Source: an uncultured Cetobacterium sp. (GTDB lineage: Bacteria > Fusobacteriota > Fusobacteriia > Fusobacteriales > Fusobacteriaceae). From it: a DNA stretch of 64,000 bases. The notes beneath the pieces are model-generated. The model made no database searches. It saw nothing but the letters and a program-made list of their open reading frames with translations, and was not told the origin of the DNA. Below, in pieces: positions 19,351 to 44,604 of the stretch; the first letter of the stretch is position 1, and every line of letters begins with the position of its first letter. Made by a program: the position numbers and the translations under genes. The DNA lies in the NCBI RefSeq assembly GCF_947072685.1, contig NZ_CAMTIK010000006.1, positions 1-64,000 of the forward strand, in the 5' to 3' direction.

Positions 19351-20304
19351 ATGATAAGTATAATTATTCCAGCTTTCAATGTGGAGAGATACATAAAAAG
19401 ATGTGTAGAATCGGTATTGAATCAAACTTTAAAAGATATTGAAATAATAATAATTGATGATGGTTCAACAGATAAGACATCTGAAATATGTAAAGAGTTA
19501 GAGAAAAAAAATAAGAATATAAAATATAAATTAATTAAAAATAGTGGTTGTAGTGCTGCAAGAAATATAGGATTATCTCTTTCAACAGGTGAATATGTTG
19601 CATTTTTAGATTCCGATGATTGGATAGAAAGTAAAATGTATGAAGAGCTATATAGAAAGGCCAAAAATGAGAATTCGGATATAGTAATTTGTGGATTGAA
19701 AAAAATAAATGAAAATGGGGAAAAAATAGCGGAAGTTGAAGTACCTACGGGATTATCAAAAGATGACTATTTGGATTGTAAAGCGGAATGGTTTTCATCA
19801 CCGTGCAATAAGATATATTCAAAAGAGATGCTGATAAAAAATTCCTTGGATTTTCTTTTAAATATTTATACAGGTGAAGATATGTTTTTTAATTTTAAAG
19901 CATTTTTTTTTGCAAAAAAAATATCAGCAGTAGATACTCCTTATTACAACTACTATATGAACCAATATTCGGTTTCAAACAACTATAAAAATAGAACAGA
20001 TATATATATTGTTTTAGAAAAATTAATAGATTTTTATAAAATGAATGGATGTTATGAAAAAAACTTTAAAAAAATACAGGAGTGCTTTTTATATCATGGT
20101 ATAATATATCCTTTTGATGTGCTTCAAAAAATAAAAGAAAATAAAGTAGATGGATGGGAAAGAATTTATAAAGATATAAAAAATAATATAAAAAACTTTA
20201 AAAAATTAGAAAGTATAGAGATAAAAGGATATTATTTATATAGGGTGTTTAGATTAAAAATGATAGTTTTAAAAAAATATAAAAAAAAATTACTTAAACA
20301 ATAG
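19351..20304 (+). CDS. Family 2 glycosyltransferase
   Basis: This GT-A fold enzyme of 317 aa transfers a sugar from a nucleotide donor. MISIIIPAFNVERYI opens the domain, IIIDDGSTD (33-41) binds the nucleotide, and AFLDSDDW (84-91) carries the metal-binding acidic motif. The C-terminal third is Lys- and Tyr-rich with no clear membrane helix, so it is cytoplasmic or peripheral. GGGGGAT marks the ATG at 19351. The next two genes (pyruvyl transferase, flippase) follow closely, so it probably helps build a surface glycan; donor and acceptor are unknown. Confidence 0.88.
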   Translation: MISIIIPAFNVERYIKRCVESVLNQTLKDIEIIIIDDGSTDKTSEICKELEKKNKNIKYKLIKNSGCSAARNIGLSLSTGEYVAFLDSDDWIESKMYEELYRKAKNENSDIVICGLKKINENGEKIAEVEVPTGLSKDDYLDCKAEWFSSPCNKIYSKEMLIKNSLDFLLNIYTGEDMFFNFKAFFFAKKISAVDTPYYNYYMNQYSVSNNYKNRTDIYIVLEKLIDFYKMNGCYEKNFKKIQECFLYHGIIYPFDVLQKIKENKVDGWERIYKDIKNNIKNFKKLESIEIKGYYLYRVFRLKMIVLKKYKKKLLKQ

Positions 20305-35910: not shown

Positions 35911-35940
35911 AAGGTGAATTAAATAAAAATCCATTTATAT

Positions 35941-35978
35941 GGTAGATGTTCGTAAACCTCCATCTTAAAAAAACTAGG
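35941..35978 (+). promoter_or_regulatory. preQ1-I riboswitch
   Basis: The short H-type pseudoknot of preQ1-I riboswitches is visible. P1 is AGATG / CATCT (35944-35948, 35961-35965), the loop TTCGTAAACCTC carries the conserved cytosine region, and an A-rich tail (TTAAAAAAACTAGG) supplies AGG (35976-35978) to pair with CCT (35957-35959). Ligand binding should fold the tail and change the fate of the downstream terminators. The two genes behind it fit queuosine salvage. Confidence 0.85.
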
Positions 35979-35995
35979 CTTAAACTATTAAGTAT

Positions 35996-44357: not shown

Positions 44358-44397
44358 ATATTTTAAAACTTTTTAAAACATACTGTCGTCAAAATAT

Positions 44398-44430
44398 TGT
44401 AATTAAAAATAAGAAAGTTTTTTAATTACA
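44398..44430 (+). other. A-T rich hairpin, first of three in this intergenic region
   Basis: TGTAATTAAAAA / TTTTTAATTACA (44398-44409, 44419-44430), a 12-base perfect stem with a nine-base loop. No T run follows, so it is not a simple terminator. Its outer arms (TGTAATTA, TAATTACA) could also be an operator. Confidence 0.5.
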
Positions 44431-44464
44431 GAAAGACTTTATACTTATAAGAGTATTATTTAAT

Positions 44465-44507
44465 CCCCCCCTGTAAACGGTTCTCTACCCCCCCCGGAGA
44501 ACCGTTT
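44465..44507 (+). ncRNA. C-rich stem-loop, possible small RNA or leader element
   Basis: A run of seven C (44465-44471) precedes an 11-base perfect stem AAACGGTTCTC / GAGAACCGTTT (44475-44485, 44497-44507). Its loop is almost entirely eight C residues (44488-44495). In such AT-rich DNA, two C tracts held in single-stranded positions stand out. Together with the terminator at 44519 this resembles a small RNA with C-rich seeds able to pair with G-rich ribosome sites. No clear promoter was found, so the transcript is inferred. Confidence 0.45.
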
Positions 44508-44518
44508 CAACTTTTTTG

Positions 44519-44552
44519 TACTTCTAAATTTATTTAGAAGTATTTTTTTTTA
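44519..44552 (+). terminator. Terminator after the C-rich element
   Basis: TACTTCTAAA / TTTAGAAGTA (44519-44528, 44533-44542) with a four-base loop and about nine T residues. Confidence 0.8.
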
Positions 44553-44604
44553 CAATTTTATATTGTATAATGTAATAAGTCGTTCGAGTTTATTAGGGGG
44601 AAAA

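What the first reader, a model, noticed from the sequence alone, without database searches (positions are those of the whole stretch)
44398..44552. Three-hairpin non-coding region with C7 and C8 tracts
Between rlmA and an MFS gene lie a 12-base A-T hairpin, then an 11-base hairpin whose loop is eight C residues and which is preceded by seven more C residues, then a classical terminator. Long C runs are out of keeping with this AT-rich DNA. It could be a small RNA whose C-rich loops pair with G-rich ribosome sites: the next gene has GGGGG before its ATG, and so do the genes at 19351 and 20319. It could also be a leader that senses something, or a slippage-prone phase-variable tract.
Basis: partly seen in the sequence, partly recalled or inferred. 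Interest (0 to 1): 0.75.

Follow-up and report, generated by a model that had tools for sequence, protein, structure and literature searches.

The report
Stress-sigma-driven C-rich small RNA
Downstream of rlmA in this Cetobacterium genome lies a conserved small-RNA gene with its own stress-sigma-type promoter and two runs of cytosines that probably pair with G-rich ribosome sites of envelope-protein messages, a counterpart of the FoxI/FoxJ stress RNAs of Fusobacterium that some relatives have multiplied to about ten copies.

Summary
It is an independent small-RNA gene, not an MFS leader or a phase switch. In 11 of 12 Cetobacterium genomes an orthologue follows rlmA, with an invariant ECF-sigma (sigmaE)-type promoter (AAACTTTT-N13-CGTCAAAA), an invariant C7 run, and a terminator hairpin whose loop is C6-9 and whose stem shows compensatory changes. 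The same promoter motif precedes the genome's own ECF sigma gene. Relatives carry up to about ten dispersed paralogues (61 distinct copies collected; 39 with a C-loop hairpin, 37 different hairpin sequences). Other Fusobacteriaceae genera have such promoter plus C-tract RNAs, many beside fomA-like porin genes. Best explanation: a trans-acting sRNA of the FoxI/FoxJ kind that represses envelope mRNAs by pairing its C runs with G-rich Shine-Dalgarno sites. Target evidence is only class-level: secreted-like proteins are about two-fold enriched among best-pairing sites, but the single best site is not conserved and the adjacent MFS gene ranks 169th of 1940. No expression data were available; orthology to FoxI could not be tested. 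Known kind, new anatomy (second C seed in the terminator loop) and copy-number expansion.

The parts
44365..44394 (+). ECF-sigma (sigmaE)-type promoter: -35 AAAACTTTTT (44365-44374), -10 GTCAAAA (44388-44394); start of transcription expected at about 44399
   Evidence: AAACTTTT and CGTCAAAA with 13 bases between are invariant in 11 of 11 orthologues; same motif 58 bases before the ATG of the genome's own ECF sigma gene; same motif before every paralogue
44399..44429 (+). 5' A-T hairpin, 11 bp, beginning at the expected first nucleotide
   Evidence: 99.2% of cells paired, 2 pairs with changes on both sides
44441..44456 (+).
   Evidence: 100% of cells paired, one-sided changes only
44457..44471 (+). 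Single-stranded seed UAUUUAAUCCCCCCC, with C7 at 44465-44471
   Evidence: AUUUAAUCCCCCCC invariant in 11 of 11 orthologues; AATTTAATCCCCCC recurs in most paralogues
44475..44517 (+). Terminator hairpin (12 bp, 44475-44507) with C8 in the loop (44488-44495), then TTTTTT (44512-44517); second seed
   Evidence: 99.2% of cells paired, 5 pairs with changes on both sides; 39 of 61 copies have such a C-loop hairpin, 37 different sequences
44519..44551 (+). Second, back-up terminator: 10 bp hairpin and T9
   Evidence: 79% of cells paired, stem lost or changed in part of the species
44566..44571 (+). TATAAT, -10 box of a separate promoter for the MFS gene
   Evidence: TTATATTGTATAAT invariant in 11 of 11 orthologues

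Best explanation
The region is a small-RNA gene transcribed from its own ECF-sigma (sigmaE-type) promoter when the cell's ECF stress sigma factor is active. The RNA (about 120 nt to the first terminator, about 150 nt to the second) exposes two C-rich seeds: a single-stranded UUUAAUCCCCCCC and the C8 loop of its terminator. These pair with G-rich Shine-Dalgarno regions, mainly of secreted and outer-membrane protein mRNAs, and block their translation, as FoxI and FoxJ do for fomA in Fusobacterium nucleatum. Shown here by sequence: promoter motif, RNA structure, seed conservation, membership of an expanded family. Inferred: transcription, dependence on the sigma factor, pairing, targets, repression.
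For: Promoter and C7 invariant in 11 of 11 orthologues and structure supported by compensatory changes. Promoter motif shared with the genome's own ECF sigma gene. Tens of dispersed copies in relatives with the same promoter spacing and C runs; no hit of the reversed control pattern that could explain them (0 in the genus). Relatives in other genera carry promoter plus C-tract RNAs beside fomA-like porins, and one lies after der, where foxJ lies in F. nucleatum. FoxI/FoxJ precedent: sigmaE-dependent, cytosine-stretch seeds, repression of fomA and other envelope genes (PMC11005410). Secreted-like proteins enriched among best-pairing start regions, 28 of 100 against 15.4%, p 7e-4.
Against: No transcript data. 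Enrichment of secreted proteins is modest, rests on crude gene calls and several cut-offs were looked at. The best single pairing site (C1:6381) is not conserved in five relatives. Of three fomA-like genes only one ranks high (29th; the others 366th and 793rd). Composition-matched control patterns for the promoter alone hit the own genome as often (2 and 3 against 2), so the promoter call rests on conservation and on which sites are hit.
Confidence: 0.78

Rival explanations
1. A cis-acting leader or attenuator of the downstream MFS gene that senses a ligand or its own product.
For: It lies upstream of the MFS gene in the same orientation; RNAalifold can pair the C7 run with the MFS GGGGG site in most orthologues.
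Against: Two terminators and a separate invariant TATAAT lie between the RNA and the gene. Cetobacterium sp. 2A has the RNA with a different, oppositely oriented gene downstream. Dispersed paralogues have no MFS neighbour.
Confidence: 0.06
2. Only a strong terminator region of rlmA, or a slippage-prone, phase-variable tract, without regulatory function in trans.
For: The structures follow rlmA directly and would terminate its mRNA; the loop C run varies from 6 to 9 between species.
Against: Promoter, 5' hairpin and C7 are conserved beyond what a terminator needs. Dispersed copies keep promoter plus C runs without rlmA. The C7 run does not vary among species and no reading frame depends on either run.
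Confidence: 0.06
3. The RNA is a sponge that titrates a protein or another G-rich RNA through its C runs rather than an mRNA repressor.
For: Multiplication of copies and repeated identical motifs are also seen in protein-titrating RNAs such as RsmX/CsrB (discussed in PMC4132741); stems vary while loops stay.
Against: Nearest characterised RNAs (FoxI, FoxJ) repress mRNAs by pairing (PMC11005410). No poly(C)-binding protein was sought here.
Confidence: 0.1

Closest known systems
FoxI and FoxJ, sigmaE-dependent sRNAs of Fusobacterium nucleatum (PMC11005410)
   Same: Same bacterial family; sigmaE-type promoter shared with the sigma gene; cytosine-stretch seed, linear in FoxI and in a hairpin loop in FoxJ; similar length (FoxJ about 156 nt); independent gene.
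   Different: This RNA has both a linear and a looped C run, the latter in the terminator; it lies after rlmA, not at the der/ylmH place of foxJ; relatives have up to about ten copies.
LhrC1-5 of Listeria monocytogenes (PMC4132741)
   Different: Different phylum; controlled by the LisRK two-component system, not an ECF sigma; short UCCC motifs instead of C7-C8. Analogy only.
6C RNA / B11 of actinobacteria (Rfam RF01066)
   Same: Cytosine runs exposed in hairpin loops, a trans-acting RNA (general knowledge).
   Different: Scores 21.6 bits against a gathering score of 47; one C run here is unpaired; different phylum and promoter type.
MicA, RybB and MicL of Enterobacteriaceae
   Same: Noncoding arm of a sigmaE response that lowers outer-membrane protein synthesis (as described in PMC11005410).
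   Different: Hfq-dependent, no C-run seeds, no sequence relation (general knowledge).

Membership tests
sigmaE-dependent C-stretch sRNAs of Fusobacteria (FoxI/FoxJ kind) | ECF-sigma-type promoter of the same type as that of the sigma gene | tested here: met
   AACTTTT-N14-GTCWAAA hits exactly this RNA and the ECF sigma gene in the own genome; invariant in 11 orthologues. Motif only; sigma dependence itself not testable.
sigmaE-dependent C-stretch sRNAs of Fusobacteria (FoxI/FoxJ kind) | Exposed cytosine-stretch seed, conserved | tested here: met
   C7 invariant and unpaired; C6-9 in the terminator loop
sigmaE-dependent C-stretch sRNAs of Fusobacteria (FoxI/FoxJ kind) | Discrete stable transcript, induced by sigmaE and oxygen | not testable with these tools
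   No expression data held
sigmaE-dependent C-stretch sRNAs of Fusobacteria (FoxI/FoxJ kind) | Represses envelope mRNAs such as fomA by pairing at the start region | tested here: inconclusive
   Secreted-like proteins enriched 28 of 100 against 15.4%; one fomA-like gene ranks 29th of 1940, others 366th and 793rd; best site not conserved
FoxJ orthologue | Position between der and ylmH | tested here: not met
   This RNA lies between rlmA and an MFS gene; nothing of the kind follows der in the own genome
FoxI orthologue | Sequence and position of FoxI | not testable with these tools
   FoxI sequence and the papers that give it were not held
6C RNA (RF01066) | Score at or above the gathering threshold of 47 bits | tested here: not met
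   21.6 bits, E 0.79

The most novel reading that the evidence does not exclude
Cetobacterium has expanded a sigmaE-controlled sRNA into a dispersed multigene family (1 to about 10 copies per genome) with a constant promoter and two constant C seeds but freely varying terminator stems, so that copy number sets the strength of the envelope-stress brake and the terminator loop doubles as a seed; a layout not reported for Fusobacteria in the papers I could read.
Probability: 0.45. Interest if true: 0.6.

Novelty: new variant of a known kind. Interest (0 to 1): 0.5.

Why it matters
It extends the noncoding arm of the fusobacterial sigmaE response from F. nucleatum to Cetobacterium, a genus known mainly from fish guts. 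It gives a simple signature (promoter plus C run plus C-loop terminator) for finding such RNAs across Fusobacteriaceae, and a natural series of copy numbers, one to about ten, for asking why bacteria multiply a stress sRNA. It also explains a striking departure from the AT-rich composition.

Tried and rejected
Rfam: no family (weak BTnc231 and 6C hits far below threshold). MFS leader and phase variation: rejected on synteny, terminators and the invariant C7. FoxJ orthology: rejected by position. Specific target C1:6381 (an exopolysaccharide-cluster gene with G7AUU before its start): striking pairing but not conserved in five relatives. Strict control patterns in the own genome gave as many chance hits as the promoter pattern, so the promoter claim rests on conservation and on which sites are hit, not on rarity. 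A first alignment mixed strands and was discarded; one search replaces it. The two original FoxI papers were not held. No covariance model was built; the pattern searches and pair counts sufficed.

Full report
Observation. As RNA it folds far better than shuffles (-42.1 against -18.9 kcal/mol, z -6.8). In the 2.11 Mb of this genome that I held, C or G runs of seven or more number 20, and only here do two C runs of at least seven lie within 40 bases on one strand. Four hairpins can be named: 44399-44429, 44441-44456, 44475-44507 (loop C8) and 44519-44542 with a T9 tail.

Promoter. Just upstream lies AAAACTTTTT-N13-CGTCAAAA. In 11 Cetobacterium orthologues its core (AAACTTTT and CGTCAAAA, 13 bases apart) is invariant although the bases between vary. 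A search of the own genome for AACTTTT-N14-GTCWAAA gives two places: this one, and a place 58 bases before the ATG of a 150-aa ECF sigma factor (C14:27441; Pfam Sigma70_r2 and r4_2, NCBIfam sigma70-ECF). Control patterns give 2 and 3 chance hits, so rarity is not the argument; the argument is that the hits are exactly the sigma gene and this conserved RNA, and that the motif precedes every paralogue. A looser pattern also finds the region upstream of a Kup-like potassium transporter (C2:13252).

Conservation of the RNA. The genus is Cetobacterium, by the titles of records with the nearest RlmA. Eleven of the twelve genus genomes have the RNA directly after rlmA. The twelfth, an incomplete 1.2 Mb genome, has no clear rlmA match and carries versions elsewhere with a linear C7 and a plain terminator. 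Cetobacterium sp. 2A keeps a diverged version after rlmA (ATCCCCCCACC, then CCCTCACTCCCCCCGAGGG) with a different downstream gene; a more distant Fusobacteriaceae bin has none there. In the alignment the C7 is always seven and the loop run is 6-9. In the named structure 94.4% of cells pair, against 41-52% for slid structures; nine pairs have changes on both sides, five of them in the C-loop stem, and no shuffle of 500 reaches the covariation score. The last hairpin holds in only part of the species, so the C-loop hairpin plus TTTTTT is the universal terminator.

Family. The pattern promoter + C6 within 10-40 bases hits 10 of the 12 genus genomes, and the reversed control none of 61 family genomes. 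With a wider gap and C5 I count nine further copies in G003 (8 contigs, 98% complete), twelve in G001 (some perhaps from duplicated contigs), seven each in G002, G007 and G008, six in G006, and none in G000 and G010. Of 61 distinct copies collected, 39 have a C-loop hairpin by my test, with 37 different hairpin sequences; two or three of these, outside Cetobacterium, have only a C3 loop. Neighbours differ from copy to copy. Outside the genus, G048 has the same layout; G014, G016, G024-G028, G036 and G047 (seen in the loci read: L100, L102, L246, L248, L250, L251, L253) have promoter + C-tract RNAs beside fomA-like porin genes, mostly directly upstream; G015 has one after der, the position reported for foxJ. 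A stricter pattern finds nothing outside Fusobacteriaceae among 98 genomes of the phylum.

Mechanism. PMC11005410 describes FoxI and FoxJ of F. nucleatum: sigmaE-dependent, raised by oxygen exposure, with cytosine-stretch seeds (linear in FoxI, in a hairpin loop in FoxJ), repressing fomA and other envelope mRNAs; its authors call poly-cytosine stretches a possible hallmark of sRNAs in low-G+C bacteria. [quoted passage not shown] By analogy this RNA should repress envelope mRNAs. A crude test: I called 1941 genes and scored pairing of the linear seed with -35 to +25. Strong pairing is far more frequent there than inside genes (51 against 3 at -18 kcal/mol or better), as expected for a C-rich sequence against Shine-Dalgarno sites. 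Secreted-like proteins were enriched: 28 of the top 100 against 15.4% overall, p = 7e-4, also after regression on anti-Shine-Dalgarno strength. But the best site (C1:6381, G7AUU, at the head of an exopolysaccharide-type gene cluster) is not conserved, one fomA-like gene ranks 29th while two others rank 366th and 793rd, and the MFS gene ranks 169th. The target class is therefore plausible; no single target is shown.

Verdict. The finding is a real, conserved sRNA gene. Steps shown: promoter motif, structure, seeds, family. Steps inferred: transcription, sigma dependence, pairing, repression. It most likely works like FoxI/FoxJ and is of the same kind by promoter and seed; orthology to FoxI is untested and to FoxJ is not supported by position. 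New are the double C seed with one in the terminator loop, and the expansion to about ten dispersed copies in relatives.

Noticed in passing
own genome contig C3:105776 (L138) and C10:41405 (L177), outside the window: Two further intergenic C-rich RNAs with a C7-loop terminator hairpin and a linear C5-C6 run but without the sigmaE-type motif (C3 has TTGACA-N17-TATACT upstream): probably two more sRNAs of the genome, under other control.
   Followed up: partly
L246, L248, L250, L251, L253, L100, L102 (other Fusobacteriaceae genera): Promoter plus C-tract RNAs lie beside fomA-like porin genes, the known target of FoxI and FoxJ, sometimes two in tandem: regulator and target are neighbours.
   Followed up: partly
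own genome contig C1:6381, minus strand (L120): UAGGGGGGGAUUGAU before the start of a 105-aa secreted protein in an exopolysaccharide-type cluster matches the linear seed with -28 kcal/mol, but relatives lack the G7.
   Followed up: yes
own genome contig C2:13252, plus strand (L127): Another ECF-type promoter (AAAACTTTTTT-N-CGTCTAAAA) with a transcribable region of about 450 bases before a Kup-like potassium transporter; a similar stretch occurs in L028 of a relative.
   Followed up: no
window 35939-35983 (+): PreQ1 riboswitch aptamer (Rfam RF00522, 39.7 bits, gathering score 39).
   Followed up: no
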